Assembly: GCA_037783545.1 (NCBI GenBank)
Contig: JBBELK010000836.1
Location: 62,001-126,000, forward strand
DNA from: Henricia sp. BOLD:AAB3569
Taxonomy: Eukaryota > Echinodermata > Asteroidea > Spinulosida > Echinasteridae
Direction: 5' to 3'
Length of the DNA stretch: 64,000 nucleotides
Numbering within the stretch: the first letter of the stretch is position 1; every line of letters begins with the position of its first letter. The translations under genes were made by a program, and so were the position numbers. The notes under the pieces were generated by a model. It was not told the origin of the DNA. It did no database searches and saw only the letters and a program-made list of their open reading frames with translations. Of this stretch, positions 11,183-56,866 are shown piece by piece.

Positions 11183-11243
11183 ATGTCTCAACACAGCTTT
11201 GGAGTTCTTCTGCTATCGCTGACGGCTCTGCGGTTTATTTCAG
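11183..11243 (+). CDS. Receptor exon 1: signal peptide
   Basis: This exon starts at the ATG at 11183 and ends in phase 1 before a GTAACT donor. It encodes MSQHSFGVLLLSLTALRFIS, a short N-region and a hydrophobic core typical of a secretory signal peptide. Joining it to the kringle exon at 23853 keeps the frame and places the mature chain just before the first kringle cysteine. The intron that follows is 12.6 kb. An alternative upstream non-coding exon or promoter cannot be excluded; no clear TATA box is visible. Confidence 0.75.
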
Positions 11244-23200: not shown

Positions 23201-26200
23201 GCGAGTATTAGCGACGCCTGTAAGATAGTTCTTGAGGTTAATGGTGCATTGCACTGAACACGAATCAATAGGATAGTAGAGCACCGAAACGTTTCCTTGA
23301 AAAACTCTTGAAATCGTCAAGTGGTAAGAAAGAGATTGCGTCTAAACTCGGCCCACGCGTGGCGCCGAGCCTGATGTTAACCATGCACCGTCACATCAGA
23401 ATTACTAGCACGGTATATTAATCAGCGGGTATTCTATACGTAATCTTTAAGGAGTATCTATCATATTTTTTCCAAAACAAAATGTAGGCCTAGCTGTTAC
23501 TTTTCTCCCAAAACTTTTAAAGATTAGGTATAGTTGAAGGAGCCGTACTTTCCACACCGTGTTCACCTTTGTGTTCCGACTTATGAGAACAGACATGCAG
23601 ACAGTGTCATACCAGAATATAGCGGCTTGGATTAGATATTTAAAGACCCAATATATACATAAGAAATACATAAGAAACATTTTTAAAGGATTCCTGGAAT
23701 AAGGGCATATAACACATCTAAAGAAGAAGGATCACGGTAAATGAGTCTGCAGAAATTTTAGCTGGGCTGCATATGCGTCAATAGTTCAGAAAAGCTGTTA
23801 ATCCCGAGACAGTCTCGGGATTAACCGGTCTCTTTTATGTTCTCATTCCCAGGTCAGTGGGATTGTTACGACCCGGGGAGGCGTGAGTACGATGGCACGG
23901 TATCTACAGCGTGTCTTAGCAGCACGAATGGAGAGGAGTGCGTGGAGTGTCTGCCGTGGGGGACCGTCATGGATCAAGTGGACAGTCTCGGGATTAACCG
24001 GTCTCTGGGTAAGTAAAAATCATCGATAAAAATTAACAAGAAACATCTCAGAATGTGAATCACAAAATATCAGAATACCGCTGCATCTTCGTCTAGTTAT
24101 ACCACCCGTGCTGATACTGTACATTTGAAATAAATAATAAGATATACGCGCCTTCATAAAGAACATTATGTAGCCTACATTCTATGACAAAGTAAAGTTA
24201 TTTTGTATGCACAAATTAACGATTGAAATCATTGAATCGAACAACATCTCAAAAATGTTAGTCGAAAAAAATGTACTGACCAATACATACAAGTATACTG
24301 ACCAATCAAAAACGTATTTTTGTAATTGTACCTAGGCCTATGCACTTTTAAAACGACTAGGCGATTTAGAACCAGTCGAAGGCATTATGGAAACCACAGT
24401 TTATTGAAGACTTTACTCCGAGAAGATGAATTCTGAAGACGCATATCAAAGCAGGTTCACGACCGATGTGAACTGAATCTTGAATCTGAAATGAATCCTG
24501 CTATTGCCGTCGACGATCGGCAAGAGACGATCGGCAAGAGACGATCGGCAAGAGACGATCGGCAATGTCCAGCGGAAACGGGAATGAGGTCACCCGCTCA
24601 AAACACCTGGTGGTCATGTGGTCCTAAAGGGACGCCTCTAATCGCCATTATACGCAATGACAATTTGTCAAATTCTTACGGCTTCTCTCGTCTATCTTTT
24701 ATTTCAATTTCGTGAGTTTCTGCATGAAACCCCGACAATAATTGTCTGATTCCATTAGCTAATTACAAATGTCATATACTGTAGAAGTATTTACGCGTTG
24801 GCGGCGGCTTACCAAGAGCGATTAATGTATTTAAAACATCGCGCCGATTTTTGACTTTGTGTCTCCAAAAAGGCGTAGCGGGCAGAGATGAACTACATGA
24901 TGTTTAAATTATGACAAGCTAAGACAGGACGTGCGTTTGTTTGTCCTGCGACACATGACCAAAGCAATATGTCACGTGACGACTTCAACAAGTAAACTTG
25001 CTAAAACTGGACCAATCAATCAATAATTTTTATAACAGCTCACAAGATTTTCCATAATATCCTCTGTGTAATTGCTTTTCTCTCGACTCATACACGGTGG
25101 TGCATCTCTACCTGTAAACGGTGTCTCAACACGTTGTGGATGTAGTTTTGTGTTACATGTCCCCAGAGGCAGTCTGCATGACTCAAAAACTCTCCATTGG
25201 CCCCATTTTCCGGAGGTATATACTCTAAAGCCACCTATAAAAGCAAGGAGATGGTTTTACGGGTCTCGGAATGTTTTCAAAACCTGCGAGATTAAATATT
25301 GTTTATTTGTCCTCAAAACCTATTTTCCAGCGCCTCACTTCCGTTTTTCTGGGGAGTAAACTTTCCCGAGCCGACGTGGGTGGCTAATCGCGAATAGAGC
25401 ACCCAATTTTGCGATATGCCTTGTCGAAACAATGATTGTCCTCCCTTTGTCCATGTTACATTCATCAAGATTAAATGCAGCGCATTGTCAACGTGTCCCA
25501 TCGGGCGCCCCTGACCATGATTTACTCTCGTCATAACACCCTATATACGCAAGGCAATCATCTCAACTCATTGTACATATACTGTCATTATTGCCGGATT
25601 GTGATCCCAACAAAGCCAATCCCCAGTGGGAATAAAAATAATCCACACAGCGCTAGATAATCAAAGAGTGTATCATGTCTAGAAGGAAAGGCGAAGAACT
25701 CGCATGCAAGATAAATAATCTTTTTCTAGAATGAAATGTCCACATGCAGGCAATCTTCAGTCATCAAGTGTTGTTGTACCTCTTGCCTCATTAACAATTC
25801 ATGGAGCAGGTTGGAAATTTAACACCTGCGTTTTGTTACCGTGAAGTATCTGGGTTTCCCCGCCTTATAACCTCCCCGTTTAAACGGAAACAGGCAGTTT
25901 GTGAGAGGATGATACGGTTTTAGCAATTTTCAACAGGTATATACATTCGTAAACAGAAGGTTTAAATCAATTGAAGACACCGGGGGTTCTAGACTATTCA
26001 AGGTGTCCCATTCAACGGGTGATATTTGCATCAAGTCACATAAAATATAAAAACAGGTTTCAATGGTCATGTAAAAACCATGGAGTTAGCAATATCTGTT
26101 GGTGTTTAAGTCAATTGAAAAAGGTTTTGTTTTTAACGCCAATCGACAAAATTCAAATATTACAAATATTACATCACGCATCTTTTCATTTGCAAATTTG

Positions 26201-29450: not shown

Positions 29451-29482
<32 letters not shown>

Positions 29483-44400: not shown

Positions 44401-47400
44401 TCTGCCTATCAGAGCGGAGTTTCTTTAATGGCAAGTGCTACGCTTTTAGAACAACCAATCACTCGCTCCGTTGGACAGACGCACAACGTCTTTGCACAGC
44501 AGAGAGCGCCAATCTAGTCAGCATTAATGACTACGCAGAAATGAACTTCATCCATCGTCTTATGACGTCAGAGTGGCTCACCAATAACTCCAACACGTAC
44601 ATCGGTCAGTAAAATGGTCATGAATGTAAAGAACCACGGGAATAGATTTGTTATAATTAAAGGCACAGGCTCGTCAGCAATGCGCGCGCGCCAAATTCGT
44701 GCCACGAAATACGCAGCTCCATGCCTTGCTGACGAGCCTGTGCCTTTAATGTGAATCCATGCTGGGAACCATTCCTCTCTGTTCGATCATCATAAACAGT
44801 AAAACCAGAAACACCAGGTACTCCCCCTTTCTCTTGAGAGCAAATAGTCTGTGATCATTTAATTCAATAAACAACCACCTAAACCTACGACCGACATTAT
44901 ACATCCCGTCTAGTCTGGATTACGTATAATTAAGCGCTGTGCTTAGGAGACGAACTTAAACCAGCAACCTCAGCTTTGACGATCAGATTATTTCGAGACA
45001 ATGATAAAAACGACTCTGCCAAGCATACTTCCTTTTTTACAGGCTTAAGATATAATCACAATCTACAACAACATCGCTGGCAAGATGAAAGCCCTCTGAG
45101 CTACGCTGACTGGTCGGTACCACGAGATACAGGGTCCAGACAAATGTGAGTCGAGTCATTTGGTCAAAAAAATCATCTGGAGCAAAAGGTTTGGTTTGAG
45201 TTTATGCATACAGGGCAACTAGGCTTGAAGCATCCCGTTTATTAAAAGGAAATCAAAGAAATGAGGGAAACAATGAAATTGTTGAATTATAAATTGTTGA
45301 GATACTTGAGTCAAGCTGACTCACAACACCTCAGTGACTTCCTGCTCATTTGAAGATGATGAAGCAACTTGGATGCATTGTGAAAGCGTTCAGGCATCAA
45401 TTTAGTAAGTTTTCTTCGTGTCCATTTTCAGAGTGACGTCACTACACGTTACAAACAGTGCGCCCCAGCCGGATGGTGGCGCCCTGGAGAGATGCTCCCA
45501 GATCATTCTGCGCAATCTCCACTCTACCAGCCACTGGCACGATGTGCCCTGCGCATCCAAGAACTCCAATCAGTTTATTTGTGAAAAACTGGCAGAAATA
45601 CCAGGTATAAACACAAAATATCATCCAAACTGTAAAAAACAAACCGACTATTGATCGCTCTTGCCGTTAAGGTGTAAAAATAAATGCGAATTTTGTGTAA
45701 ATTGTAATCAAGCTGGTGTAGACTTTGTTCAATGTGATCTAATTTCGAATTACATTCACAAAATTCACCGCAGTATACATAAAGTTCACAGCCGAAACTC
45801 TGGCCACATTTGAATGATTGATTTCCATTCATTTGAATATCCCCACAGGTGAATCGGCGCACACGCCTCGTGGAGATCTTCAGGTGCTACACACGGCAGG
45901 TGCGTTGTAAGGATCGTTAATTTGGAGTTCATATCGACAGGTTGTTTTCGTAATTCTTCTGCATGTCCTGTTCTAATTGTTTCTCCTGTGATATTACTCT
46001 CGGCAGTTTGTCCTGCTAGATGGACTCTGATAGGCGGATTGTACTGCACGAAGCCACTGCTAAACCAAAGCGGCACATTCGTAAACCGATGCCCTGGTGA
46101 CTCCAAGCTGGCTACGTTAATGGATCCCGAGATCGACCACAAATTACCGTACTTCATGCAATACGTTTGGGGACTAGACTCGCGTGCCAGCAACAGATTT
46201 CTGATTGGACTGCGCGGATCAGGTGACCACGTGGTCTATGACGTCATGATGCACGTCGACGGTCATTGGACGAAAGTTCACGAACGCGATGCCAATGAAG
46301 TACATGGGGCGGTTTGTGCAAAAGAAGCAACCGGTAAATGAAATGAAATCAAACAATTTTAAATTCCAAACTGGCAACTAAAACTTTAATAATTTATTTT
46401 GGTGTTCAAAATTAAACCAATGTAAACGTATTAATTTTTAGCATCTTTTGTCTCATAGCAATAATTCCGCAGTGTGAAAGCAGTATGTTTACCTGCGGGA
46501 CAGGCGAGTGTATTCACACGGTGTTCGTTTGTGATCATCAAGATGATTGCATGGATAAAAGCGACGAGGCTTCCTGCATTAACGGTACGGTGTGGTCAGT
46601 TGGTGAGGAATAGTCCCGCCAAAAATTATAACACAACCACCAAAATCTTACAAAACATGTTTTCCACACTTCGTGCTGCCCACAAGTACATTAGAAATAA
46701 CGTCCACTAAAAAATAAAATAATCTTGTATATTCGCAATATCAGAAGTGAAATAAACCAAACATCAACAACAACAACATGAACTAGAACTTGGAACATTC
46801 TGTAACAATATAAACATATTTTTCATGTCATGAGATGCCTGCATGTGGGGATCCATATCGGGAAACGGAATCCTAGGAGATTTTTTTGAACTGATCAAGA
46901 TACTTTTATGATATATACAGAGGTTGGAGTCAGCGGCAGCGTATGCACCGATACAAGTTTTAAATGTGGGTCTGGCGAGTGCATTTCTCTCTCATTCTAC
47001 TGTGATTTCTACCCACACTGTCATGACGGTTCAGATGAGGCCGACTGCAGTAAGTAAATGACGTCACAATATCTGATAAATAATCAATGATCTGGGCAGA
47101 CATTCTTTAAATATCGCAAAACAAACAAAACGACATGCAGTTTTCGCGCCCTTTTACAGAGACCCAAACTGAATGAATACATTTCCTTGTCAGGTGTAGT
47201 AACTTGCACGGATTCCGAGTTTCGATGCGACAGTGGCCAGTGCATACGAAAAGATCTTCATTGCAATTTAGTGGTTGACTGTGTGGACGGGACGGACGAG
47301 CACGATTGTGGTGAGTTGGAATTATATCTGCACTTTTCATGACGATTTAGCCACATCGCGGTAAAATGACGCCGATTTGTTAAAACTTAAAATAACCAGA

Positions 47401-50400
47401 AAAGATAAAACGAAATTGAAAAAAGAAAGTTTAAAACGAACGTCTTTTAACAAGAATTAATTGCTTAAACATGTAACCTATTTAAAGTTATCTATAAGCG
47501 GTAACGTGGAGATTTAAACCGTCCCCAAATTCGCTCTGGGTCCCGCCTTAACTTCCTAAGCGCCTTGGACCTTTCAGCCAGCTGAAGTTTTAATTTGTAA
47601 ATGCGCTCATCCCGCGAGGTCCTGCAGACGAGCGGTTTCACAAAATTGTCGAGGCTTTGACTTCTAGGCAAAGATGATGTGGTATTCGGTGTCTTAGTGT
47701 CATGAGGCCACTTGTACTGTGGAAGCTTACTACCAATGATACTTCTGCCGTCGGAATCGATGCTGCAGTTGCCGGTATCGGAGGCTGGCAGGTGAAAGTT
47801 AGTGCATGATGACGTACTAAGGAGTCGACGCCGTTTGCAGGCGATACTGCTGGAATTAAATGTTGTAGTATCGATCGTGGACCCCACGGCACCAGAAGTC
47901 ATTATCGGCGAGTTGCTTCGACTGTTTGCAGACGGTGTCGGTGACGGCGGTCGCCATAAGAAGTTGGGATGACTTCCGTTGCAGTTTTCTGCGGCCGGGT
48001 GTCTCTCCAGCGACAATGGATCTGTAGTGGGGCCCGTCGGTGATTGGCGTGACGTCATATGCTTCTCGCGTCTCCTTGCGATTAAACCTTGCCACGATGT
48101 TGACCGTGATGACAGCGTGGCAGCATTTTTCTTCTCACTGGAAGGCGCAGGCTTAATGACCGAGTCAGACGCACTAGCTCTTTCGACCTTTGAAGACTTC
48201 AACATTGTCTGAATAGGCTGACATCTCGCGCAAATGTCTCCAAAATCTGGCAGACACCTTTTCCCTGACCTGTCTACGCGTCTCTCTGCATCTTTCGAGT
48301 TTACATCTTTGCTCTGTGCCCGACATTTGTTCACTCCATTGTCGACTCGATTGTTTAGCTTGCTATCATCCGGGCTCTGCTCCTCTGCTTTTGGCGGTGA
48401 CGGGGTACTCGCGTTAGTCTCCACCACCCGCCACGTTGGCTGGCTACACCGATCCAACCTACTAGACCCCTTGGAAAGTTTAATTCTGATGCGATGTTCG
48501 TCTGCCGAGGTGGTTGCCGTTCGTGATTTCTCACCAGGATCCTGACAATGCCTGCTTTCATTCATCTCGGGTGCAGTGTTCTTCATGGCATCATAATCAT
48601 CGTTGCTGATTGATTTCACGTCGGAGATGACCAGTTCCAAGCCGTCTAATTGCGGTCTCACATTTCCCGGTTTACTGGTCGTTGCTGAACCCGTGGAACA
48701 GTCGTTCTTGCTTTGGGCTTGCCTAACTTTGTTCATGGCACTCTTTAGCGCGCAATATGGAACCATCTTCATAAATGCCTGTCCGTTTTTCACAAGCAGG
48801 AGCGGCACGAAGGCGTTCGCTTGTCGAGCCCCAGTCGTTCGGTGGGTAGCCTCGCTCAATTTGCGGTTCATTATTGGAGTGGATACAGACATTTTCCTCC
48901 CGAACACTCGCAGACAACACCGTACAGACAGCCTCCCCAACTACTTTCAAAAGACAACTAGAAAGTACATGTACACAAAACTTCTAATAACACAGCAACG
49001 GGAGAATGTTCGTCACAACAGTTTGTTTACGACGCGCATTCAAATGAACCAATGACATTACTGCGCGCAATTCAAACACGCAGCACGCTGTTTATACTGC
49101 GCGCGAACGCGCTGCGCGAGAATTCGTCGCGCGCGCGAAGAACAAACTATCACACGCGCACAATACTTGCGCACAACTATTTACTGAAAGAACAAAGGTC
49201 AAAACAAAAGCCTAGGAAGCTGGCTTTCCGTAAATTTATTACTAAAGTTTTTTTTAATAGGCTTATCAGTTTATAGGGGATTCCCTGTTCAGGGTCGAGA
49301 TCATGGGAGTATGTCGATAACGGCTTTCGCTACTGCACTCGAATGAATATTGAACACGTGTGCGATGTTTTGTTTTGTTTTTGTTTCTTTATTTGTTTAG
49401 TATTTTTAGGGGGGAGGGGATAGAGTGTGCTCTCCAAAATTCCTTAAAGTTAGACACCAAAAGCAAAATGTCCATTAGCTATCCGTAACATTATGTTGTG
49501 GCATGTGTTACTTAACATTAACAGTGGAAGTGCAGTCTGGTTTCCAGTGTTATGATGGGGCGTGGCTTCCAGGCCACTCCCACTGTGACGGAACGAAGGA
49601 CTGTCCCGGAAACAACAGAGAGGACGAGCCGAAAGAAACTTGTGGTAGGTCAAATTTATAGCGACAGCAGTAGATTTTGTTTTGTTAAATCTCTATTTTT
49701 ATTTCCTAATTTAGTATTTGAATCTTTTTTCCTCGACTTCCCACAGTTCTCTTTCAGTGCAGTTCCGATCCAAACTTGATACAATGCAACAACGGCGCAT
49801 GCGCGGACAGAAGCCACATGTGTCTGTACGACTTCGATCAGTACGGGTATCAGACTGGTTGCCGTGACGTCACACACTTACGTTTTTGTGGTAGGTGAGC
49901 AAATTTAAGGTGCATGTCTTCAAGAAAATTATTTACATGGTTTCAATTTAGAAAGTTTCATTTATTTACATCAAGTGATGTGGCTTGCACCAAACCGATT
50001 TCACAAAGAAGCATAGACAAAAGTGTCATCATTTTTAAATTGCATGCAGACAATTTCGAGTGCAGCAACAACACCTTCAAGTGTCCCGGATCGTACTGCA
50101 TCCCTCTCCACCGACGCTGTGACGTCATCAAGGATTGCCCTGGAGGCGTAGACGAACTCAACTGTGGTAAGAAAATATTTGTGTTCCGTCAGAAACGAGG
50201 CACCTTTGACGAAATATCTATCATTTAACATCTTGAAGATGAAGCCATCATAGATGTGAACAGGCTACCAGTAGGCCTACTCTCCATTACCAAGCAACCA
50301 ACCCTGGAAGATTCAAAAGCTGTCTCTTTTAATTTGTTTTCCTAGTCTGCAGGCCCACGGCGTCATGGAATGTTAAGTTATGTTGCCGTGTAACACCAGC

Positions 50401-53400
50401 ATGAGGATGAAGAAGATGAAACATCTTGTCGTTATCCTGATATATTATTGTAAAAGTTCAGCATCTGAGCCAGATTTTAGTTCCTTAAAGTCGACGATGG
50501 TATCATTTCCTGGAATATTAAAGGTAACTTCTTTTCATGTCAATTTCACTTAGATAACTACACGTGTGTCGGCCATTACCGCTGTCGTGGCTCCCGGATC
50601 TGCGTGGCGCAATCGCACGTCTGTGACGGCATTAAGCAGTGTCCAGCCGGGGATGATGAGCTCTTTTGTGGTAAAACCTCGTTTTCTTTCATATTTAGAA
50701 GTAAAATTTATGTTGCTATACGTTCCTTTCTTTCTTACAAATCACAAACAAGTGAGTCAAATGATGACAACAATTAAACATTCGCGTTAATTACTCCGAC
50801 TTCGGCATTCCCTTCACGAGTAGCCGTTGCTTCTGTCCGATAATTCAGCTTGAATGACGATTCGAAATTTTGTCCGAAGACGGAGAGAAAAACCTAAATG
50901 CTATGTTGGGGCACCATCGTTGAATGTGGACGGTTTGTACTCCTTATGCGAGTTATAATTTTCTTCTTCGTTTTCATCCCAAAGAAGCACGATGTCCAGA
51001 AGGTTGCTCGTGTGCCGGTCTTTCGTACACATGCACCGGGGTGAGATGGACTCCCGAAACGGCCAATCAGATACCGAGAAATGTCCGCAAGCTGTAAGTT
51101 GACCATGCAAGAGCAGAACACTTGGGACTTGTTGAACCAAAAATACAAAACGTTTCTAGTCATAGACGCATATGACGATCCGAAGAGCTGACTGTGCGGC
51201 CTTGCCGTCGCGTCGTAGACTGTACCGTCTTGAGATGCTCTGATAGTTTTGTAACATTGCGCCATGCATATCAGAATGAAGTCACTCCGACGATTCCTTA
51301 TCCTTGCAAGATTGATTAAATAAACTTTTATGACAATTCAAATTTTTTCAGTCCAAAAGCTGAAAGATTTTCACATTTCTATAATGCAGGAAACTCCACA
51401 ATCATTTTGGGGTTAGCAGACAGCGAAGAGATACAGTGGACTACAACGTGACCGTGGAATACTCACTGTATCTACCGCTTGAGGAGTTACAACAACTTGC
51501 TGAATTGTAAGCTGTGCTGTAGACACGTAAACACCACAGATGTCAAATCGCTTCAATGTTTAAGTCCTCCCATCAATGCAGCGCGTTGCGCCTGCCACAC
51601 GCACACTGGCAATGCGCTAACAGACTGCTCCACTGACTCTTGACGCCCATTGCACAACTGTGTTCAAAACGTCTCACCGGCGTTTTATAGCAAAACATTT
51701 TATTAATGATTTAATTCATGTCATTTTCTTGTTCTTGATTGCAGAGATCTTTCTGGAAATGGTATCGACGCACTGAAACCAAGAATGTTTCAGAAGCAGA
51801 ATAATGTATACAAACTGTAAGTATTAGGCAAAGGTAGAACGAGGCGTATCTGAGAGCAGCAATATTACGTTTCCAAAAAGCTGACATGTGGCATTCTCCA
51901 AGCTTAAGGTATAATCTTGTCAAATTTTATTCCATGGTTTAACAGCGTTCTGGCGGACAATAACATCAGAAAACTTGAAAACAGAACATTCGAAGGACTC
52001 CACCGGCTGCAACGTCTGTAAGTATACCTTTTCCCGATAAGTTCAGATTTGATCCCAAGATCGATTCCGATTTAGATTTTATAACAACTAAACACAATTT
52101 GCCAAGAGGGCATTTCAGCCCATTATACGTCTTTTTCAAAATGTATTTCTTTTTTTACTACAGTAATTTATCCGGTAACCCGCTAGTTGAAATAGAATCT
52201 GGAGCATTTTGGGGCGTGGTTTCACTTCCGGTTTTGTAAGTATTAGCTCTTATTCTCATAGCTTTTTCTTCACATCCACCGACAAATATTACAATATTGA
52301 AACAAAACGCACAAACGAGCACAACAATTTAAGACGGAAATGCATTTGAGTTTGAAGAAGTATATTTTTAAAATTTTTCTTTGAGTAAATCTGTACGTCA
52401 TCAGCTGCTTCTTAATTAACGTGCCATTTACGTTATGGCTAAAACAAACACATTACTGTAAAAAGTGAAAAGAATATATAGTTTTTATATAGTTTTTATA
52501 TATGTTTTTGGTTTTTGTTTACAGAGATCTTGGGCAACTTGAGGTGCGCCATCTACAAGACGGCGTGTTCGAAGGACTGGATGCTTTAGAAGTGTTGTAA
52601 GTTGTCCACTTCGACGTCTTAGTTTACGACTCAGATATAAGCCTTATTATGTTACAATTATTCATACGTTCCTGTTTATGATTTTTCTTGGGCAGAAATG
52701 TCAGAGACAATCCACTGTCGGCGGTGGAACGAGGAGCATTCTACGGACTCGATAAAACGCAGACACTGTAAGCAGAAATATAACTTATAGTAAGCTATAA
52801 AAAGTTGAGAATGTACTTATATAGACCAATCCAAGCAGCCACCATACCAGTGCGACATTTCTCTGACGCGCGCGTACTGGCTAGTTACAGTATTCTATTG
52901 GTCGAGGGGGTATTCAACGCGTCCGTACTATCTCCACGCATGCGTCTCAATAACGGCTTCTAAGTTAGTAGTTGGCATGGACGATACAAGGCACTATACT
53001 TAAAATAACTTTACATAGCTATCGGTAGGCCTATTACCTTTTGGCATGGACGATTATCGTATGCATTTTACGAATTGTTGACCTTGATATTGCGCACTGT
53101 TTTCTTGACCTCGTCTTCTAGGGATATACGAGGGACACACATCATCAAGGTGGACCCCGAAATGTTTGAGGGACTTGAAAGCCTGGAGACACTGTAAGTT
53201 ATGCATACAGTGCTCTCTTTGTTACTGATTTTACCCCAAGGGGTCCCCGCTATTTAGCTGTAATGTGTTTCGTCTGGTATTATCTGGGATCATCGTGGTC
53301 CACAACGGCCTCAGTAAAAGTAACCATTGCAGAAAGATGAAAATGGTACACTGGATGATCTGGGTACGAGATGACTAGAGCACGAACGGCAGCAGATTTG

Positions 53401-56400
53401 AATATGACTATCATGCGTTAAGTTCACCAATGCTCGAAATTTCGGGGGTACGACTTGACCTGGGTAGTCGTACCCAGGTCAAGTCGTACCCCTGTTTTGG
53501 TCACGTGATTTGGTTTTAAAAAATACTTAAGAAAATCGGCTTACCTTTTTACAGGTACGCCGACAAGTATCTGTTCTGTTGTCTTCTGGGGGACTCCGTT
53601 GCCACTTGCGAGGCTCCCATGGACGAACTTTCCTCCTGCGAGGATCTGATGCGGAATCCCATACTCCGGGTCTTTATCTGGATCTTGGGATTCAGCGCGT
53701 TGGTCGGTAACGCATTTGTCATCGTGTGGAGGATCCGGATCAAGGATCGGGAACAATCCCGTAAGATCCAGACGTTTCTGATCCTAAACCTTGCCGTAGC
53801 GGATCTGCTCATGGGTGTGTATATGATCACCATTGCCAGTGCCGATCTTCACTACCGCAGTGATTACATGATTCACGCAGAGGAGTGGCAGGCAAGTTGA
53901 TCCATTTTTTTCTTCCCTGTCCTTGCCGCAGAATCTCTCAGAATTCGCCTGTGTAATGTATAAAAATTAAGTTTGTGTTAGCCACAAAGGCTCTCTAACG
54001 ACTTGTTGAGGTCAGGTAGAGCAATCAACAATTTCTTTTAGATCAAAGTTCATACGTGAACGATTGGGGTCCACGGGAAAAAGCGATCAATTTTGAGAAA
54101 TTGCATATCGTCTTTCAAAGATTATTAAGATATGTGGACAATGTCAAGTTTTTGAAAGCCACCCATTAACTCTGCCATGGCTTCTTGACCTCGAACACTA
54201 TAATTAGGACTTATTTTAGCTGCCTGTGGAATTGTTTCAAAATTAGGTAATATTGTGTTTGTTATTAATTTAGTACTATTAAGTACAATCCATAACCAGA
54301 TAGGTGATGGTAATAATTATATAAAAGTTGCCGAAGCATCTCTGTTGGACATTGGTTTTGAAGGAGAAAATAAAATCCTATTGAATTTTACTGCGTCTGC
54401 AAGAAGTTTACCAAGACATTTATTTTTACTTCGAGGTATAATTCCTCACGTCCGATGACCAGTCCTGGCCCGCCGTATCCCGGCAATCATAAGCCTTTCT
54501 GTCTCTATTTTGTCCAGGAAAGCATCGTGTGCCAGATGGCAGGTTTTATCTCAGTCCTTTCCAGCGAGTCATCGGTCTTTCTCCTGGTCCTAATTACCAC
54601 TGACCGATTCCTGGGCGTCGTGTTCCCCTTCAGCCGGTGGCGACTCCACACTAAATCGGCTCGCTACGCCGTGGCCGGTCTCTGGTCCATGGCGTTCTTG
54701 CTCAGCCTCCTGCCCGTCGTGCTCAAGCCGGCCTTCGGTGATCGTTTCTACGGTCGCTCCAGTGTCTGCCTGGCTCTGCCTTTTACCCAGACCAAGCTCC
54801 CAGGCTGGGAGTACTCGGTGGTCTTGTTTCTCGGCGTGAATCTGCTGGGATTTCTCGTCATCTTCATCTGCTATTTCTTCATGTACGTCGCCATCAAGAG
54901 GGCTTCTAAACAGGTAAACATATATCAAGTTGGTGTGCTTTCAAGCTGTTGGAGTTGACGCATAACTGGACAAACGCCGCATGGCTGTGGTGATATTTTT
55001 GAAAAACGTCAGCTGCACAATAAACAAGTTAAACTTTAAGTCGTTGGCATCAACTTTTCAACCTCTCTATAATGGTACTTTCTATAGTACCATATTGGTA
55101 CTATAGGTTGGTAATATTCTTTTGGTGCGGAACATTGCCAGTGATGAAGCTTCTATTTGGTACACATGTCGTCCAATGAGTGATCTTGTTAGCGCTATAT
55201 ACAGTGTACCAACATTTCTAATCTTAAACCGGCCTCCTGCTACTACAACTGAACTCGCCTCTTCGGTGCCTTGTTGCACCAATGACCTGCCACCATTTTC
55301 CTCTCAAACCAACATGGTGCCGCTTACAGACGTAAGGACGGCTCCTCAAAAATGACAAGGACTGGTGTTTGTGAAGTAATGTGAAAAATGGTCTATGATA
55401 CACGTTTTTCATTTTTACCAACAGTGCACAAGGAAGCGAGAGCACATGGAAGAAATCAAGATGGCGACCAAGATGGGCATCATAGTCGGCACGGATTTCT
55501 TCTGTTGGATGCCCATCATTATCATGGGTCTGCTGTCCCTGTCCGGGACGACCACCATCCCGCAGGAGATGTACGCCTGGGCGGCCGTCTTCATGCTTCC
55601 AGTCAACTCGGCTGCCAATCCATACCTGTACACCATATCTAGTCTTGATAGGTACGGAGTACATAATAAATGGCTCTCAATGATTATTTGTAGCGTAGAG
55701 AGAATTAAAGGATACGTGTGTGTATACTGTGCAGTACTGGCTTCTCGATCTCTACCTGTTTTTTGGGGGTTTGCTTTTTTTTGACTGGATATGTACATTT
55801 ACATGTTTACAGAAAACGCAAGAAGGCAAGAACGTCCACGTCGTCTCCAACGTGGAAGACGGAATGCACACGAGACGTCAGCCAAGACTTTGAGATGGTC
55901 AAATATGCAAAACCCGATAGTAATTCAAAAGGTATGATGCTGATCCGAATTGCGTTTCATATCCCTTGTTAATGTGACTATAAGTGTGTACGATGTGCTG
56001 CAAAATCTTTCAAAATCAGAAAACGGTTCCTGGAACATTATTTTTATCCATTTTCTTCCACTTTCATTCTGGCCAAGCAGACAACCATTCGCTGATGTCG
56101 ACTGTCATAACAGACCAGATGGAGCACCGGGTCTTGCCGCTCCTCGGTAGGCGTGGCTACTCCTTCCTCCTCAGGCAATACATAGCCGAGGTCAAAACGC
56201 CGTTGGGCGTCTCTGTCGTGTCAGCCATCGAGAATGACCTCAGGAGAGCGCTAGACTTCCTCCACAAGAGCGGCATTGCCCATGGTAGGATCGACGAGGA
56301 CTTTGTCGCCATTGACAAGGTACCAACGATTTGTCTAAGATCATGTTAACAATATGGAGCACGGAAGCGGAGGCACATATATTGGCAGTTAAAGCAAATT

Positions 56401-56866
56401 ATGTATTTGAGATTTGACAAAATGAAATCCATGTTATATCCCCTTAAGTCACAGGAATTTGGACAGAAAAAGAAATCCCTTTCAACAAATGTACACATTG
56501 TGATCGAAGGGGATATGCCGATTTGGAAACAAACTGGTGCATGATCCAGAGGGTCACGTACAGATAGAGTGCCTCAACAGAACGTTTAATGAGTCCTTAT
56601 GCCCAGCCATTTCAATTGACGCCACTATAAAAACTACCACCGCGTCTTTACCATTATGCGAACATTAAAGAGAATCTGAACGTTTTGTTCTCACCTAGGA
56701 GCGAAAAGAAGACAGAATAGCCTTCCTGATCATGCGGGGCGAGCCCCTTGATGGGGACGATAGCAGCGGCAGTGGGGCGTCTTCGAACGAGGAGGAGGTA
56801 CCGTTACTTCGACGCGATTACCGGCAGCTGGACGAGCTTCTCGCTAGATTGAGGGGATCGCACTAG
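11183..56866 (+). CDS. Giant mosaic LRR-type G-protein coupled receptor (GRL101/LGR-like), 50-exon model
   Basis: I see a 50-exon reading frame of 8160 nt (2719 aa) with a GT-AG splice at every junction except one GC-AG, and the phase agreeing throughout. Domain order by approximate residue: signal peptide 1-20, kringle 25-116, kringle 122-200, PAN 201-298, three F5/8C 309-459, 460-620 and 621-778, lectin-like 779-913, EGF 914-955, unrecognised 956-1019, CUB 1020-1154, 1155-1286 and 1287-1427, lectin-like 1428-1589 and 1607-1715, seven LDLa 1716-2005, LRR cap and LRRs 2006-2224, hinge and 7TM 2225-2544, tail 2545-2719. LDLa plus LRR plus 7TM is the family signature of relaxin-type LGRs and molluscan GRL101. 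Inferred role: cell-surface receptor for an unknown ligand signalling through G proteins. The adhesion and lectin modules suggest a large or glycosylated ligand. Exon boundaries are read by eye; skipped or alternative exons cannot be excluded. Confidence 0.93.
11457..11526 (-). mobile_element. tRNA-like head of a SINE (or tRNA pseudogene)
   Basis: On the - strand, GCTCGGTGGTCGAGTGGTTA forms an acceptor and A-box region. A CTGC/GCAG anticodon stem encloses the loop CTTGTTT, GGGTTCGAGTC is a B-box, and CCGAGC closes the acceptor stem. The T-stem has a mismatch and loop position 37 is T, so a working tRNA is unlikely. Near-identical 36-base direct repeats flank it at 11347-11382 and 11604-11640. 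Confidence 0.55.
11858..12007. mobile_element. Palindromic MITE of the TATAGACCGT family, copy 2
   Basis: Ends TATAGACCGTATCGAATAGC and GCTATTCGATACGGTCTATA are inverted repeats. The core GGACATGCATGGTTGCACAT is the reverse complement of the core of the copy at 5606-5754, so the two are inserted in opposite orientation. Confidence 0.75.
13261..14310. mobile_element. Composite inverted-repeat element carrying a nested MITE
   Basis: The left arm 13261-13339 (GTACTCGTGTTAACACGA ... AATAACGACACTCGGGTCAG) pairs with the right arm 14228-14310. Inside are partial extra copies of the GCTGCGTTCGGGCGTG end near 13838 and the nested TTAA palindrome at 13478-13616. Confidence 0.6.
13478..13616. mobile_element. 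TTAA-flanked palindromic MITE, copy 1
   Basis: TTAA flanks AGGCACAGGCTCGTCAGCAA and its near inverse. The middle is the palindrome GCAGCTCCATAGCAAAGGTA followed by TGGAGCTGC. The TTAA duplication suggests piggyBac-type mobilisation, as an inference. Confidence 0.75.
17323..17786. mobile_element. Inverted-repeat element, about 460 bp
   Basis: The left CTTGGGCTGCTTTCGAGCG pairs with the right CGCTCGAAAGCAGCCCAGG. Inner blocks (CCCTGGTGCTC / GAGCACCAGGG and GGGATCCCTG) repeat in both arms. No coding capacity is evident. Confidence 0.5.
19005..19142. mobile_element. TTAA-flanked palindromic MITE, copy 2
   Basis: It starts TTAAAGGCACAGGCTCGTCA and ends GACGAGGCTGTGCCTTG; the right TTAA is altered to TGAA. 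The same GGAGCTGC palindrome forms its centre. Confidence 0.75.
19741..22175. repeat. 76-bp tandem repeat (minisatellite/satellite), about 32 copies
   Basis: The unit starts GGAGTGCATCCTGGGTGATA, contains GGAGCTAGTATGCTTGGTGT and ends TTAGCTTGGTAAACCC. Starts at 19741, 19817 and 19893 give a 76-bp period that continues to about 22175. Copies are almost identical. Three carry an extra T (CACTTTAGC), so they are 77 bp. The period is not a multiple of three, so no repeated peptide is encoded. It lies in receptor intron 1. Confidence 0.97.
22230..22330. mobile_element. GGCGGATCC-family MITE, copy 2 (right end truncated)
   Basis: It starts CAGAGGCGGATCCAGCCTCA and ends TTTTAATGAGGCTGGAT, lacking the last nine bases of the inverted terminus. 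It lies directly after the 76-bp array. Confidence 0.65.
23799..23833. repeat. Intronic palindrome that copies the end of the next exon
   Basis: GTTAATCCCGAGAC, one A, then GTCTCGGGATTAAC form a 14-bp perfect inverted repeat. The 26 bases at 23808-23833 are identical to 23981-24006, the last part of kringle exon 2. Confidence 0.9.
23853..27072 (+). CDS. Receptor exons 2-3: kringle domain 1
   Basis: Exons 23853-24008 and 26938-27072 together encode one kringle. It begins WDCYDPG and ends CDIPPC, with the NYCR core at the start of the second exon. It has eight cysteines where a canonical kringle has six; the extra two fall between the first cysteine and the LPW motif, in ACLSSTNGEECVECLPW. The PWC motif of kringle 2 is replaced by PKC. 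Both outer junctions are phase 1, as for a shuffled module. Kringles in this family are extracellular protein-binding modules; this one may have an additional disulphide. Confidence 0.88.
24512..24567. repeat. 14-bp tandem repeat, four copies
   Basis: GACGATCGGCAAGA is repeated at 24512, 24526, 24540 and 24554; the last copy ends GCAATG. Confidence 0.85.
27712..28510 (+). CDS. Receptor exons 4-5: kringle domain 2
   Basis: Exons 27712-27849 and 28403-28510 encode a canonical six-cysteine kringle with FQCLRW, NYCRNPNN, GPWCYY and DYCSIPF. The final cysteine codon is split across the junction to the next exon at 31170. The exon structure (two exons split before the NYCR motif, phase 1) matches kringle 1, so the two domains most likely arose by tandem duplication of an exon pair, with kringle 1 diverging further. 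Confidence 0.93.
28743..28853. mobile_element. GGCGGATCC-family MITE, copy 3 (complete, 111 bp)
   Basis: The left end CAGTGGCGGATCTAGCC is the reverse complement of the right end GGCTGGATCCGCCACTG, with similarity extending about 38 bases through ATTAAAATACAGGAATATA. The core holds GGGGCTACAGCCCC. It lies in the receptor intron after kringle 2. Confidence 0.8.
29426..29481. repeat. G-rich tract ending in a run of 30 G
   Basis: GGGGGAGGGGGAGGGGGAC precedes an uninterrupted G run at 29452-29481. It could form G-quadruplex structure. The exact length of such a run is prone to sequencing error. It lies in the intron between receptor exons 5 and 6. Confidence 0.85.
29698..29850. mobile_element. 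Short inverted-repeat element (possible MITE)
   Basis: GGTGGATTGCAATA on the left matches TATTGCAATCCACC on the right, about 150 bases apart. The interior holds GAAGACGTCTTAAGAGTAAA. No clear target duplication. Confidence 0.4.
30123..30669. mobile_element. Fold-back transposon with CGTCGCGCTTATGCCGTGTC termini
   Basis: The left TTCAAACGTCGCGCTTATGC followed by CGTGTCGAA is inverted at the right end (TTCGACACGGCATAAGCGCG then ACGTTTGAA). Additional internal copies at about 30158-30197 and 30300-30328 form smaller palindromes. GTTAGG and CCTAAC mark the probable outer ends. It lies in the receptor intron before the PAN exon. Confidence 0.65.
31170..34192 (+). CDS. Receptor exons 6-8: PAN/apple-like domain and linker
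   Basis: Exons 31170-31333, 33759-33885 and 34160-34192. The pattern AEDCARQCLDETDFTCRSF, then HCYLTNLS about 25 residues later, fits the PAN/apple cysteine spacing C-x3-C-xn-C-x2-F-xn-C-L. The third exon is only 33 nt and encodes a linker (VCDAYKEDSYP) leading into the first F5/8C domain. PAN domains bind protein or carbohydrate outside the cell. The junction between exons 6 and 7 is phase 0, inside the domain; the outer junctions are phase 1. Confidence 0.82.
34486..35359 (+). CDS. Receptor exons 9-10: F5/8 type C (discoidin) domain 1
   Basis: Exons 34486-34796 and 35215-35359. It begins ASCPLPLSIGNSNIAQIHAS and ends with the diagnostic ARYLEINPLDWYGGIALRIE followed by VLGC. The opening and closing cysteines are in the family positions. 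F5/8C domains bind lipids, glycans or proteins. The internal junction is phase 0 and the outer ones phase 1. Confidence 0.94.
35675..37219 (+). CDS. Receptor exons 11-13: F5/8 type C domain 2
   Basis: Exons 35675-35812, 36318-36508 and 37066-37219. Recognisable parts are DIHSSQITASSSVGDDRG near the start, PWLQVYLPGVHQITAVVTQG in the middle and ICLRLELVGCKY at the end. This domain is split into three exons whereas domain 1 uses two. All outer borders are phase 1. Confidence 0.94.
37601..38595 (+). CDS. Receptor exons 14-16: F5/8 type C domain 3
   Basis: Exons 37601-37755, 38170-38346 and 38454-38595. The chain runs from ACGKRLGMESEAITQSQITE through HWIQVDLLTLHTVTGLITQG to YCLRLEIIGCKLS. The three-exon structure with phase 0 internal introns is the same as in domain 2, so domains 2 and 3 are probably the more recent duplicates. 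Confidence 0.94.
38861..39265 (+). CDS. Receptor exon 17: C-type lectin-like domain 1
   Basis: A single 405-nt exon encodes a divergent C-type lectin-like fold, with the segments AFRWSDGTPMTFVNFRWP, TEWCVYVDM and a final ATICQL. The EPN/QPD and WND calcium and sugar-binding motifs are absent (the WND position reads MRWREFQC), so classical calcium-dependent sugar binding is unlikely. Protein or non-classical ligand binding is an inference. Confidence 0.85.
39676..39801 (+). CDS. Receptor exon 18: calcium-binding EGF-like domain
   Basis: One 126-nt exon, phase 1 at both ends, encodes DLDECAASNSHCSHDCANFP followed by GGFQCLCPRGF and a final VCT. It has six cysteines in EGF order, and the DLDEC start is typical of calcium-binding EGF modules. 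It sits between the first lectin-like domain and an unrecognised segment. Confidence 0.95.
40310..40501 (+). CDS. Receptor exon 19: unrecognised extracellular segment
   Basis: This is a 64-residue exon with phase 1 borders, canonical splice sites and an open frame. It has four cysteines (LCNEH, IDCFAD, PSCLG, STCSG) and an acidic serine-rich stretch near VDSDSSAVST. I do not recognise it as a known module. It could be a small novel disulphide domain or a linker between the EGF and CUB regions. Confidence 0.8.
40559..40708. mobile_element. Harbinger-like MITE, 150 bp, with CTA target duplication
   Basis: Ends GGGCGTGTTTGTTTC and GAAACAAACTCGCCC are inverted repeats, flanked on both sides by CTA (40556-40558, 40709-40711). 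A 3-bp duplication and GGGC-type ends fit PIF/Harbinger elements, as an inference. A related GTGTTTGTTTCATGACAGAT sequence occurs at about 6164 inside the element at 5981-6740. Confidence 0.65.
41708..42498 (+). CDS. Receptor exons 20-21: CUB domain 1
   Basis: Exons 41708-41870 and 42257-42498, with a phase 2 internal intron. Features of a CUB fold are GYIHSMGFPPWYNQASTCQ, then INIQIPPGNSVRLEI, FCGK and LGFMASY near the end. It is divergent: the first segment has a long basic loop, VLRRKHRTSRC. Confidence 0.85.
42795..43486 (+). CDS. Receptor exons 22-23: CUB domain 2
   Basis: Exons 42795-43021 and 43318-43486, with a phase 0 internal intron. A typical CUB pattern is seen: CGTKEVLTSPSGNFSTTNFP, then ICTWNINL, an acidic loop FQVDEDEDNTECVDFVQ, MCGSKP and GFQAHYQS. 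The acidic loop resembles that of calcium-binding CUB domains, which is an inference. Confidence 0.92.
43883..44305 (+). CDS. Receptor exon 24: CUB domain 3
   Basis: One 423-nt exon encodes GCGIGFYHGDGIQHCTMSKA, then IASENYPRPYLDGTSSVWHI, a beta-strand-rich middle, MTVRFRGDGSVAGNGFYAEY and a short hydrophilic linker. Unlike CUB 1 and 2 it has no internal intron and lacks the second cysteine pair. Confidence 0.88.
44395..45604 (+). CDS. Receptor exons 25-27: C-type lectin-like domain 2
   Basis: Exons 44395-44604, 45043-45145 and 45432-45604. This is the most typical lectin fold here: GKCYAFRTTNHSLRWTDAQR, LCTAESANLVSINDYAE, YIGLRYN, HRWQDESPLSYADW, then WHDVPCASKNSNQFICEK. The four framework cysteines are present. 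The EPN/QPD sugar-specificity motif is not seen. The intron between the first two exons holds a TTAA-flanked palindromic MITE. Confidence 0.93.
44657..44749. mobile_element. TTAA-flanked palindromic MITE, copy 3 (internally deleted)
   Basis: Intact TTAA on both sides and matching ends AGGCACAGGCTCGTCAGCAA and TTGCTGACGAGCCTGTGCCT. About half of the centre is missing. It lies in the receptor intron between exons 25 and 26. Confidence 0.8.
45849..46333 (+). CDS. Receptor exons 28-29: linker and degenerate lectin-like domain 3
   Basis: Exon 45849-45899 is a 51-nt phase 1 linker (GESAHTPRGDLQVLHTA). Exon 46007-46333 encodes a lectin-like domain with CPARWTLIGGLYC, KLATLMDPE, NRFLIGLRG and GAVCAKEAT. 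It keeps the IGLRG-type core strand but lacks the usual W-D-D-P-C segment, so I regard it as a degenerate C-type lectin-like fold; a distinct fold cannot be excluded. Confidence 0.75.
46459..47310 (+). CDS. Receptor exons 30-32: LDL-receptor class A modules 1-3
   Basis: Exons 46459-46584, 46921-47049 and 47194-47310 each encode one LDLa module with six cysteines and phase 1 borders. Their calcium-site ends read DDCMDKSDEASC, PHCHDGSDEADC and VDCVDGTDEHDC. All keep the D-x-S/T-D-E calcium-coordinating pattern. LDLa modules are essential for activation in relaxin-type receptors, which is family knowledge rather than something shown here. Confidence 0.96.
47492..48940 (-). CDS. Intronless nested antisense gene, product unrecognised (482 aa)
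   Basis: A single open frame of 482 codons lies entirely within the receptor intron 47311-49524 on the opposite strand. In this AT-rich DNA an unbroken frame that long is very unlikely by chance. I used the first ATG, but the second (Met17, MSVSTPIMNRKLSEATHR) is also plausible. The protein is hydrophilic, Ser/Arg/Lys-rich and mostly predicted disordered. Two blocks look conserved-like: NAFVPLLLVKNGQAFMKMVP near the N-terminus and ERIYKLKLQLAERSKALRKL at the C-terminus, the latter probably helical. I see no signal peptide or membrane segment. KRRR- and RRRE-type basic clusters suggest a nuclear protein. A retrogene origin is possible; no family assignment is made. Confidence 0.75.
   Translation of the reverse strand: MGRLSVRCCLRVFGRKMSVSTPIMNRKLSEATHRTTGARQANAFVPLLLVKNGQAFMKMVPYCALKSAMNKVRQAQSKNDCSTGSATTSKPGNVRPQLDGLELVISDVKSISNDDYDAMKNTAPEMNESRHCQDPGEKSRTATTSADEHRIRIKLSKGSSRLDRCSQPTWRVVETNASTPSPPKAEEQSPDDSKLNNRVDNGVNKCRAQSKDVNSKDAERRVDRSGKRCLPDFGDICARCQPIQTMLKSSKVERASASDSVIKPAPSSEKKNAATLSSRSTSWQGLIARRREKHMTSRQSPTGPTTDPLSLERHPAAENCNGSHPNFLWRPPSPTPSANSRSNSPIMTSGAVGSTIDTTTFNSSSIACKRRRLLSTSSCTNFHLPASDTGNCSIDSDGRSIIGSKLPQYKWPHDTKTPNTTSSLPRSQSLDNFVKPLVCRTSRDERIYKLKLQLAERSKALRKLRRDPERIWGRFKSPRYRL
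49030..49180 (-). promoter_or_regulatory. CpG-dense stretch upstream of the nested antisense gene
   Basis: The 150 bases just upstream of the 48940 start are packed with GCGCGC and CGCGCG steps, in strong contrast to the AT-rich surroundings. The position fits a CpG-rich promoter for the antisense gene. No TATA box is evident. This is inference from composition and position only. Confidence 0.4.
49525..50670 (+). CDS. Receptor exons 33-36: LDL-receptor class A modules 4-7
   Basis: Exons 49525-49644, 49747-49890, 50050-50166 and 50554-50670. Modules 6 and 7 are canonical (KDCPGGVDELNC and KQCPAGDDELFC). Module 4 has five cysteines and an altered acidic end, NNREDEPKETC. Module 5 is degenerate, with no SDE calcium motif (GCRDVTHLRFC). 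The intron before exon 33 contains the antisense ORF at 47492-48940. Confidence 0.92.
50985..53193 (+). CDS. Receptor exons 37-44: LRR N-terminal cap and leucine-rich repeats
   Basis: Exon 50985-51093 gives an LRRNT cap, CPEGCSCAGLSYTCTGVRW, ending IPRNVRKL. Exon 51390-51506 gives a longer, poorly conserved repeat. Then six exons of exactly 72 nt follow: 51745-51816, 51946-52017, 52164-52235, 52525-52596, 52696-52767 and 53122-53193. Each encodes one 24-residue LRR and every junction splits a Leu codon in phase 2. One repeat per phase 2 exon is a hallmark of LGR-family genes. The acceptor of exon 37 may lie three bases downstream (AAG/AAG). Confidence 0.95.
53445..53492. repeat. Perfect hairpin, 22-bp stem and 4-base loop
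   Basis: 53445-53466 (GGGGTACGACTTGACCTGGG then TA) is the exact reverse complement of 53471-53492, with the loop GTCG. It sits 62 bases before the exon that starts the hinge and TM1. Confidence 0.9.
53555..55651 (+). CDS. Receptor exons 45-47: LGR hinge and seven-transmembrane domain
   Basis: Exons 53555-53891, 54518-54913 and 55425-55651. The hinge has FCCLL and MDELSSCEDLMRNPILRVFI, as in relaxin and glycoprotein-hormone receptors. TM1 is near VFIWILGFSALVGNAFVIVW and TM2 contains NLAVADLLMGVY. TM3 contains the disulphide cysteine in SIVCQM and ends TTDRF in place of D/ERY. TM4 to TM6 follow, with TDFFCWMPI in TM6, and TM7 ends NPYLY, the NPxxY motif. The intron 53892-54517 uses a GC donor (CAG/GCAAGT); joining across it gives the expected sequence before TM3. 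Confidence 0.97.
55813..56866 (+). CDS. Receptor exons 48-50: cytoplasmic tail with kinase-like segment
   Basis: Exons 55813-55931, 56081-56319 and 56699-56866 (TAG at 56864). The tail starts with a basic, Ser/Thr-rich stretch (RKRKKARTSTSSPTW) that could be phosphorylated. Residues about 2634-2664 read like the helix E and catalytic-loop region of a protein kinase: LRRALDFLHKSGIAHGRIDE, then DFVAIDK. The HRD motif is replaced by HGR and the catalytic Asp and Lys are lost. A last helix, DYRQLDELLARL, resembles helix F. With no N-lobe or DFG, this is at most a pseudokinase remnant. An acidic serine loop (DGDDSSGSGASSNEEE) separates the two parts. Confidence 0.9.

What the first reader, a model, noticed from the sequence alone, without database searches (positions are those of the whole stretch)
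11183..56866. A GPCR with an exceptionally large mosaic ectodomain
The sequence shows about 21 extracellular modules of eight recognised kinds (kringle, PAN, F5/8C, C-type lectin-like, EGF, CUB, LDLa, LRR) ahead of one relaxin-type 7TM domain, in a frame that closes over 50 exons. LDLa plus LRR plus 7TM receptors are known (relaxin receptors, molluscan GRL101). The addition of tandem kringles, discoidin, lectin and CUB domains makes this a possible pattern-recognition or adhesion receptor coupled to G proteins.
Basis: partly seen in the sequence, partly recalled or inferred. Interest (0 to 1): 0.78.

Follow-up and report, generated by a model that had tools for sequence, protein, structure and literature searches.

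The report
Giant mosaic relaxin-type receptor gene
An animal's DNA holds what looks like one very long gene that puts a string of about twenty outside binding modules, of kinds more usual in blood and immune proteins, in front of a hormone-type G-protein receptor, and a second gene in the same genome carries these modules in the same order.

Summary
Two more, an LDLa-like exon 35 and exon 30, are not recognised.

The strongest new evidence is a paralogue. On contig C264 of the same genome (54% identity in the 7TM) the modules recur in order over 63 kb: kringles, PAN, F5/8C, CTLD, EGF, CUB x3, CTLD, LDLa, LRR, 7TM. C480 carries the kringles, PAN, CUBs, CTLD and 7TM. The first F5/8C and signal peptide were not seen there. 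Separate genes joined by mistake are therefore very unlikely, although no transcript was available.

The LRR-7TM part is closest to RXFP1 among solved structures. By features it resembles GRL101-type (type C2) LGRs. Similar snail receptors (lectin, LDL, LRR, 7TM) lie in a schistosome-resistance region (PMC12297450). Ligand and coupling are inferred. A kinase-like stretch in the tail is a weak lead.

The parts
11183..11243 (+). exon 1, signal-peptide-like MSQHSFGVLLLSLTALRFIS, phase-1 donor
   Evidence: of 10 hydrophobic ATG starts listed in 5000-23853, two have a donor above the threshold: this one (61 nt, score 3.2) and 6537, which lies in tandem-repeat sequence. Followed by a 12.6-kb intron, so less certain
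23853..27072 (+). kringle 1 (exons 2-3)
   Evidence: Pfam Kringle alone E 3.4e-4, below cut-off; part of it matched on C264/C480 at 51%
27712..28510 (+). kringle 2 (exons 4-5)
   Evidence: best Kringle stretch, family E 2.1e-19; C264 51% and 50%
28837..28884 (+). 16-aa linker exon 6 (uncertain)
   Evidence: gene finder only
31170..33885 (+). PAN domain (exons 7-8)
   Evidence: Pfam PAN_1 E 3.6e-6; C264 39%
34160..34192 (+). 11-aa linker exon 9 (uncertain, strong splice sites)
34486..35359 (+). F5/8 type C (discoidin) domain 1 (exons 10-11)
   Evidence: Pfam F5_F8_type_C alone E 6.7e-14
35675..37219 (+). F5/8 type C domain 2 (exons 12-14)
   Evidence: exons 13-14 match C264 at 41%
37601..38595 (+). 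F5/8 type C domain 3 (exons 15-17)
   Evidence: C264 37-49%
38861..39265 (+). C-type lectin domain 1 (exon 18)
   Evidence: Pfam Lectin_C E 4.7e-6; C264 34%
39676..39801 (+). calcium-binding EGF (exon 19, 126 nt, same length in C264)
   Evidence: Pfam EGF_CA E 6e-10
40310..40501 (+). exon 20, unclassified linker with cysteines; the paralogue has a lectin-like stretch here (by eye)
41708..42498 (+). CUB 1 (exons 21-22)
   Evidence: Pfam CUB alone E 4.6e-13
42795..43486 (+). CUB 2 (exons 23-24)
43883..44305 (+). CUB 3 (exon 25)
44395..45604 (+). C-type lectin domain 2 (exons 26-28), keeps a QPD triplet
   Evidence: Pfam Lectin_C E 3.6e-16; QPD seen, meaning of the motif recalled
45849..45899 (+). 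17-aa linker exon 29 (uncertain)
   Evidence: gene finder only
   Evidence: not recognised by Pfam or PDB sequence search
46459..50670 (+). seven LDLa or LDLa-like modules, one exon each (exons 31-37), all phase 1-1; the fourth lacks two cysteines, the fifth (49747-49890) is not recognised by Pfam
   Evidence: Pfam alone: modules 1, 2, 3, 4, 6 and 7 match, 5 does not; C264 47-72%
50985..51093 (+). LRR N-terminal cap (exon 38)
   Evidence: C264 43%
51745..53193 (+). six LRR exons of 72 nt, all phase 2-2 (exons 39-44)
   Evidence: Pfam LRR_8 E 7.7e-32
53555..55651 (+). hinge and 7TM (exons 45-47), class A motifs GN, ADLLMG, DRF, CWMP, NPYLY
   Evidence: 7tm_1 E 1.3e-35; RXFP1 E 1.9e-55 for this part alone; motifs
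55813..56866 (+). cytoplasmic tail (exons 48-50) with a weakly kinase-like stretch, aa about 2606-2661
   Evidence: no other copy found in the genome

Best explanation
One gene encodes a type-C LGR (relaxin/GRL101-like class A GPCR) whose LDLa-LRR-7TM signalling core carries an extended antenna of kringle, PAN, discoidin, lectin, EGF and CUB modules. Shown by sequence: the predicted gene structure, the modules, the intact 7TM switch motifs, and a second locus with the same order of the modules found. Inferred: the outer modules capture a glycan- or protein-bearing target (microbial surface, apoptotic cell or matrix). Capture positions the LRR and LDLa part, which triggers the 7TM as the LDLa does in RXFP1/2, and a heterotrimeric G protein is activated. 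The outer modules would set specificity or location; the core would signal.
For: Independent 50-exon model with an open frame. Pfam domains. RXFP1 as best solved relative over LRR plus 7TM, E 1.7e-86. Kringle 1, kringle 2 and PAN follow upstream in order on C264 and C480; CUBs and CTLD2 also on C480. Three copies of the paralogue 7TM exon show purifying selection (raw dN/dS 0.068, 0.088, 0.137). Introns between module classes are mostly short and the scan found no new signal-peptide start in those of 150 bp or more. Published: LDLa needed for RXFP activation (abstract openings of PMC3822782, PMC5468325 and PMC4837482 in the listing); snail GRL101-like receptors with CTL, LDL, LRR and 7TM in a schistosome-resistance region (PMC12297450 passages).
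Against: No transcript. Exons 1-12 of the window gene were compared with the paralogue only through search hits for kringle 1, kringle 2 and PAN; its signal peptide and first F5/8C were not seen, and exons 20, 29, 30 and 42-44 have no hit. No ligand, expression or coupling data. No second-haplotype copy of the window gene was found, so selection could not be measured on it. None of the other GPCR paralogue contigs appeared in the CUB/CTLD2 search (capped list of best candidates), so the antenna seems not to be general in the family. The C2 label rests on no GRL101 sequence; its clade has 86/89 support, below the program's own mark, and by BLAST score alone human RXFP1 is nearest to the C264-type 7TM (214 bits) rather than to the C448 group (190 bits, shorter rows).
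Confidence: 0.62

Rival explanations
1. It is a hormone receptor for an insulin/relaxin/IGF-like peptide, like other type-C LGRs; the outer modules are lineage-specific decoration that localise or stabilise the receptor.
For: 7TM and LRR closest to RXFP1 among solved chains; GRL101 has been proposed as an IGF receptor (PMC8286064, passages); relaxin-like peptides act on starfish RXFP/LGR3-type receptors (PMC11863921, passages).
Against: The 7TM lies outside the clade of RXFP1 with C448/C124/C594. The long run of outer modules kept in order at two loci suggests that they matter. GRL101 is called an orphan receptor (PMC11863921).
Confidence: 0.25
2. Two or more neighbouring genes (for example a secreted kringle-PAN-discoidin-lectin-CUB protein and a CTLD-LDLa-LRR-7TM receptor) have been joined on paper.
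For: The class boundaries fall in introns. AATAAA occurs in several of them: seven in intron 6 (exon 6 to PAN, 2285 bp), two in intron 20 (exon 20 to CUB 1, 1206 bp), one each in introns 5, 8 and 28. Gene-prediction errors are a known source of false architectures (PMC3927609, start of abstract in the listing).
Against: No new signal-peptide start found in the class-boundary introns scanned; several are only 89-410 bp. The same order of the modules found at an independent locus. All junctions in phase.
Confidence: 0.07
3. It is an Adhesion GPCR with a mosaic N-terminus, like the amphioxus Adhesion GPCRs with kringle, lectin, CUB and LDLa domains.
For: Shared kinds of modules (PMC2246102, passages).
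Against: The 7TM is 7tm_1, with no 7tm_2 or GPS match in the pieces scanned; best relatives are RXFP1, TSHR, LGR4 and FSHR.
Confidence: 0.02
4. The gene is a decaying or chimeric locus (assembly artefact or pseudogene).
For: Found only on C836, although several related loci appear on two or three contigs; a long repeat-rich intron 1; one GC-AG intron and some weak splice sites.
Against: 8109 nt of open frame without an internal stop; class A motifs intact; same order of modules elsewhere.
Confidence: 0.04

Closest known systems
GRL101 and type C2 LGRs (Lymnaea; arthropod LGR5; ambulacrarian orthologues)
   Same: Several LDLa modules (twelve in Lymnaea), about six LRRs, rhodopsin-type 7TM of the LGR group (PMC8286064, PMC11863921, passages)
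   Different: GRL101 is described in those passages with LDLa and LRR only; here kringle, PAN, F5/8C, CTLD, EGF and CUB modules are added. No GRL101 sequence was available to test descent.
SudRes2 GRL101-like receptors of Biomphalaria sudanica
   Same: N-terminal C-type lectin domain with LDL, LRR and 7TM; several paralogues in the genome (PMC12297450, passages)
   Different: The words kringle, CUB domain and discoidin do not occur in that main text (PAN not looked for). Those genes are clustered; here no paralogue was found within 40 kb either side
RXFP1/RXFP2 and LGR3/LGR4 (type C1)
   Same: LDLa-LRR-7TM core; best PDB match RXFP1 1.7e-86
   Different: One or two LDLa modules (starfish receptors, PMC11863921 passages) and, as far as I recall, no outer modules; this 7TM is outside the clade that holds RXFP1
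Amphioxus Adhesion GPCRs with kringle, lectin, CUB, LDLa, discoidin (PMC2246102, passages)
   Same: Same kinds of outer modules ahead of a 7TM
   Different: They belong to the Adhesion family (marked by GPS, recalled); this one is 7tm_1 without a GPS match

Membership tests
Type C LGR (relaxin/GRL101 group) | LDLa module(s), then LRR, then class A 7TM | tested here: met
Type C LGR (relaxin/GRL101 group) | 7TM most similar to RXFP-type receptors | tested here: met
   among PDB chains RXFP1 E 1.9e-55 against TSHR 8.4e-45 for the 7TM alone
Type C1 (RXFP/LGR3) | groups with RXFP1 in a 7TM tree | tested here: not met
   RXFP1 joins C448/C124/C594 (98/95); the window gene is outside (two reference receptors only, long branches flagged, midpoint root)
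Type C2 (GRL101) | several LDLa modules and about six LRRs | tested here: met
   6 recognised LDLa plus 1 LDLa-like, 6 LRR exons
Type C2 (GRL101) | groups with GRL101 sequences in a tree | not testable with these tools
   no GRL101 sequence in the collections used
SudRes2-type GRL101 with lectin | C-type lectin N-terminal to LDLa-LRR-7TM | tested here: met
   CTLD2 (exons 26-28) precedes the LDLa array, with exons 29 and 30 (unclassified) between
Adhesion GPCR | GPS/GAIN and 7tm_2 | tested here: not met
   no such Pfam match; 7tm_1 E 1.3e-35
GPCR-kinase fusion | recognisable kinase domain in the C-terminal tail | tested here: inconclusive
   Pfam nothing up to E 10; own HMM ranks the tail third among 500 shuffles; hhalign score 33.9, 0 of 300 shuffles reach it; PDB hits E 0.59-1.7, 7 of 8 kinases
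Functional G-protein coupling | ligand-dependent signalling | not testable with these tools
   only motif integrity seen

The most novel reading that the evidence does not exclude
A pattern-recognition receptor wired directly to G proteins: lectin, discoidin, kringle and CUB modules read glycan or particle surfaces and hand the signal to a relaxin-type LDLa-LRR-7TM core, with a vestigial pseudokinase piece in the tail. It would be the extreme member of a sensor family whose minimal form (lectin-LDLa-LRR-7TM) also occurs in snails at a parasite-resistance locus.
Probability: 0.25. Interest if true: 0.82.

Novelty: new variant of a known kind. Interest (0 to 1): 0.62.

Why it matters
Animal pattern recognition is usually thought of as Toll-like, scavenger or lectin receptors, and LGRs as hormone receptors. 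Two loci that keep some twenty recognition modules in the same order ahead of a relaxin-type GPCR make it directly testable whether GRL101-type receptors are surface sensors rather than hormone receptors. That question has been open since Lymnaea GRL101 and is a live one because of the snail resistance region. It also shows exon shuffling (many phase 1-1 exons) building a class A GPCR ectodomain of about 2200 residues.

Tried and rejected
Regex motif scan of six frames found almost nothing, because exons split the domains. Automatic models put exons in intron 1, in the LDLa gap and downstream of 56866 that I judged spurious; removed by hand. Amphioxus as source: suggested by literature only, not shown; a GFP-family check meant to support it did not complete. 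Copy number of the minus-strand ORF: not answered. Two single-sequence structure predictions (exon 30, exon 49) gave mean pLDDT 49 and 58 and were not used; no fold search was run. Kinase reading of the tail: an HMM of six own-genome kinases did not separate it from shuffles (rank 3 of 501, E 0.77), Pfam found nothing, phmmer only E 0.59 or worse; hhalign against the same six did separate it. Kept only as a lead. Intron 1 was searched with the window's own modules (tblastn: none at E 0.01) but not with Pfam. Tandem paralogues: none found in 40 kb either side.

Full report
What was checked. The window is animal DNA (G000:C836:62001-126000 of a 740.7-Mb assembly in 2104 contigs; many loci occur as near-identical copies on two or three contigs, so haplotypes are probably unmerged, an inference).

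Gene model. After hand correction it gives 50 exons, 8109 nt, 2703 aa and no internal stop. Notable details are seven LDLa-type exons of 117-144 nt with phase 1-1, six LRR exons of 72 nt with phase 2-2, and a GC-AG intron in the 7TM that restores the expected reading. The first exon (11183-11243) encodes a signal-peptide-like stretch with a phase-1 donor that fits the phase-1 kringle exon. It lies 12.6 kb upstream and is uncertain, as are exons 6, 9, 20, 29 and 48-50.

Domains. The protein was scanned in eight pieces plus the minus-strand ORF, some parts again with a looser limit, and ten modules alone. Against a simple count: kringle 1 alone is below Pfam's cut-off (E 3.4e-4), LDLa 4 sits exactly on it (E 4.2e-5), LDLa 5 (exon 35) matches nothing although it has six cysteines and 72% identity to its counterpart in the paralogue, and exon 30 is unclassified. 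The LRR-7TM part matches RXFP1 best among PDB chains (E 1.7e-86); for the 7TM alone RXFP1 has 1.9e-55 and TSHR 8.4e-45. No GPS or 7tm_2 match was seen. The class A motifs GN, ADLLMG, DRF, CWMP and NPYLY are present (their roles recalled). The ectodomain has 27 sequons in aa 1-2240 and 115 cysteines in aa 1-2230.

One gene or several. Introns at class boundaries: kringle 2-exon 6 326 bp, exon 6-PAN 2285 bp, PAN-exon 9 274 bp, exon 9-F5/8C 293 bp, F5/8C3-CTLD1 265 bp, CTLD1-EGF 410 bp, EGF-exon 20 508 bp, exon 20-CUB1 1206 bp, CUB3-CTLD2 89 bp, CTLD2-exon 29 244 bp, exon 29-exon 30 107 bp, exon 30-LDLa1 125 bp, LDLa7-LRR cap 314 bp, LRR-7TM 361 bp. The longest inside an array is LDLa3-LDLa4, 2214 bp. 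In introns of at least 150 bp the scan found one signal-peptide-like start with a phase-compatible donor, in intron 2, which is inside kringle 1; shorter introns were not scanned. AATAAA occurs in introns 5, 6, 8, 20 and 28 among the class boundaries, so polyadenylation there cannot be excluded from sequence.

The paralogue. A search of the animal's own genome with the 7TM and tail found the window gene only on C836, plus paralogues (best candidates only are scored): 55% identity on C264, C70 and C480, then C375, C23 (three), C930, C253/C158 (two pairs), C219 and C316/C80, and a C448/C124/C594 group at 38%. I read 53.9 kb of C264 (minus strand). Of window exons 13-47 (35 exons), 29 overlap a tblastn hit there (E up to 0.05), all in order; exons 20, 29, 30, 42, 43 and 44 have none. 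Six exon lengths are identical between the two predicted models. The predicted C264 product gives Pfam F5/8C x2, Lectin_C (E 6.7e-4, just under the cut-off), EGF_CA, CUB x3, Lectin_C (2.3e-14), LDLa x6 and 7tm_1 in the six pieces submitted. Further upstream, kringle 1, kringle 2 and PAN hits (E 0.005 to 2.5e-10) lie in order at C264:115176-112370 and again on C480. In the CUB/CTLD2 search the only contigs with hits below 1e-4 were C836, C264 and C480; weaker hits (8e-4 to 0.1) lie on other contigs, none of them a GPCR paralogue contig. C70, whose 7TM exon differs from that of C264 at 17 of 1086 nt, did not appear in that list although the contig seems long enough; this is unexplained. The C264/C70, C264/C480 and C70/C480 comparisons give 14, 25 and 23 synonymous against 3, 7 and 10 non-synonymous differences, raw dN/dS 0.068, 0.088 and 0.137. 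The same order of the modules found at an independent locus is the strongest argument that this is one real, selected gene.

Placement. In a maximum-likelihood tree of 19 7TMs, RXFP1 groups with C448/C124/C594 (98/95). The window gene falls in a clade of 14 rows (86/89, not starred by the program), with 13 other rows of this genome, about eight distinct genes by my count; C264/C70/C480 branch first among them. The program warned of long branches, and only two reference receptors, typed, were included. Against this, by BLAST score RXFP1 is nearest to C70 and C264 (214 and 212 bits), ahead of the C448 group (190 bits over shorter rows). By features (several LDLa, six LRR exons) the window gene resembles GRL101, type C2 (PMC8286064 and PMC11863921, passages), but no GRL101 sequence was available.

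How it may work. In RXFP1/2 the LDLa is needed for activation (abstract openings of PMC3822782, PMC5468325 and PMC4837482 in the listing). The window gene keeps the LDLa-LRR-hinge-7TM core, so a similar trigger is inferred. CTLD2 keeps a QPD triplet in both genes, a motif I recall as a galactose-type sugar site, although the companion WND is altered in both. Sugar or surface binding by the outer modules is inference. In Biomphalaria sudanica, twelve GRL101-like genes, ten of them with CTL, LDL, LRR and 7TM, lie in the SudRes2 schistosome-resistance region, where the authors suggest pathogen recognition; the validated variant lies in a neighbouring Zn-RING-IAP gene (PMC12297450, passages). An N-terminal lectin with LDL, LRR and 7TM is shared with the window gene.

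Literature on novelty. Full-text searches found one paper with both GRL101 and kringle, in separate contexts, and nine with GRL101 and CUB. I looked for the word in three of these nine: in PMC8286064 and PMC7510291 it is a journal code in references, in PMC7217437 a separate Pfam entry in a table; the other six were not opened for it. Searches on domain combinations listed nothing that describes this architecture in a rhodopsin-type GPCR. The library holds open-licence PMC papers only, and database-only predictions were not searchable, so automatic annotations of such proteins may exist.

The tail. Residues about 2606-2661 resemble a kinase catalytic-loop region (LDFLHKSGIAHGRI). hhalign against six kinases of the same genome scores 33.9, with 0 of 300 shuffles (maximum 24.0) and 0 of 47 other 175-aa pieces of the protein (maximum 20.1) reaching it. 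An HMM search with the same six did not separate it from shuffles, Pfam gives nothing, the PDB search only E 0.59 or worse, though 7 of 8 hits are kinases, and no second copy was found in the genome at E up to 10. GPCR-kinase fusions are reported from choanoflagellates, sponges, oomycetes and amoebozoans (PMC12716839, passages), so a bilaterian relic would be new, but the evidence is thin.

Noticed in passing
56081-56866: Cytoplasmic tail resembles a degenerate kinase catalytic-loop region (hhalign score above 300 of 300 shuffles, but HMM search and Pfam negative); no other copy found in the genome.
   Followed up: partly
47492-48940, minus strand: 482-aa open frame inside the 2.2-kb intron between LDLa exons 3 and 4; the part from its first ATG (466 aa) has no Pfam match. 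Nested gene, retrocopy or chance; copy number unanswered.
   Followed up: partly
19735-22177: 32 copies of a 76-bp tandem repeat inside intron 1.
   Followed up: no
62829-64000: 77-bp tandem repeat, about 15 copies, continuing into the next 450 bp of the contig.
   Followed up: no
11455-11527, minus strand: tRNA-Thr (TGT) or tRNA-like element just after exon 1.
   Followed up: no
L020 (C70:1911182-1915126): Third near-identical copy of the C264/C480 7TM exon, but no CUB/CTLD hits listed on C70 although the contig seems long enough: partial duplicate or assembly effect.
   Followed up: no
L028-L036: GRL101-like paralogues (C23, C253/C158, C219, C930) with the 7TM in one open frame and a longer stretch between TM4 and TM5; their ectodomains were not read.
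   Followed up: no
49747-49890: LDLa-like exon 35 has six cysteines but an unusual acidic end and no Pfam match, yet is the best conserved module between the two genes (72%).
   Followed up: partly
40310-40501 and C264 (12714-14111 of the joined stretch): Between EGF and CUB1 the paralogue has an extra lectin-like stretch (by eye) where the window gene has a short unclassified exon.
   Followed up: partly
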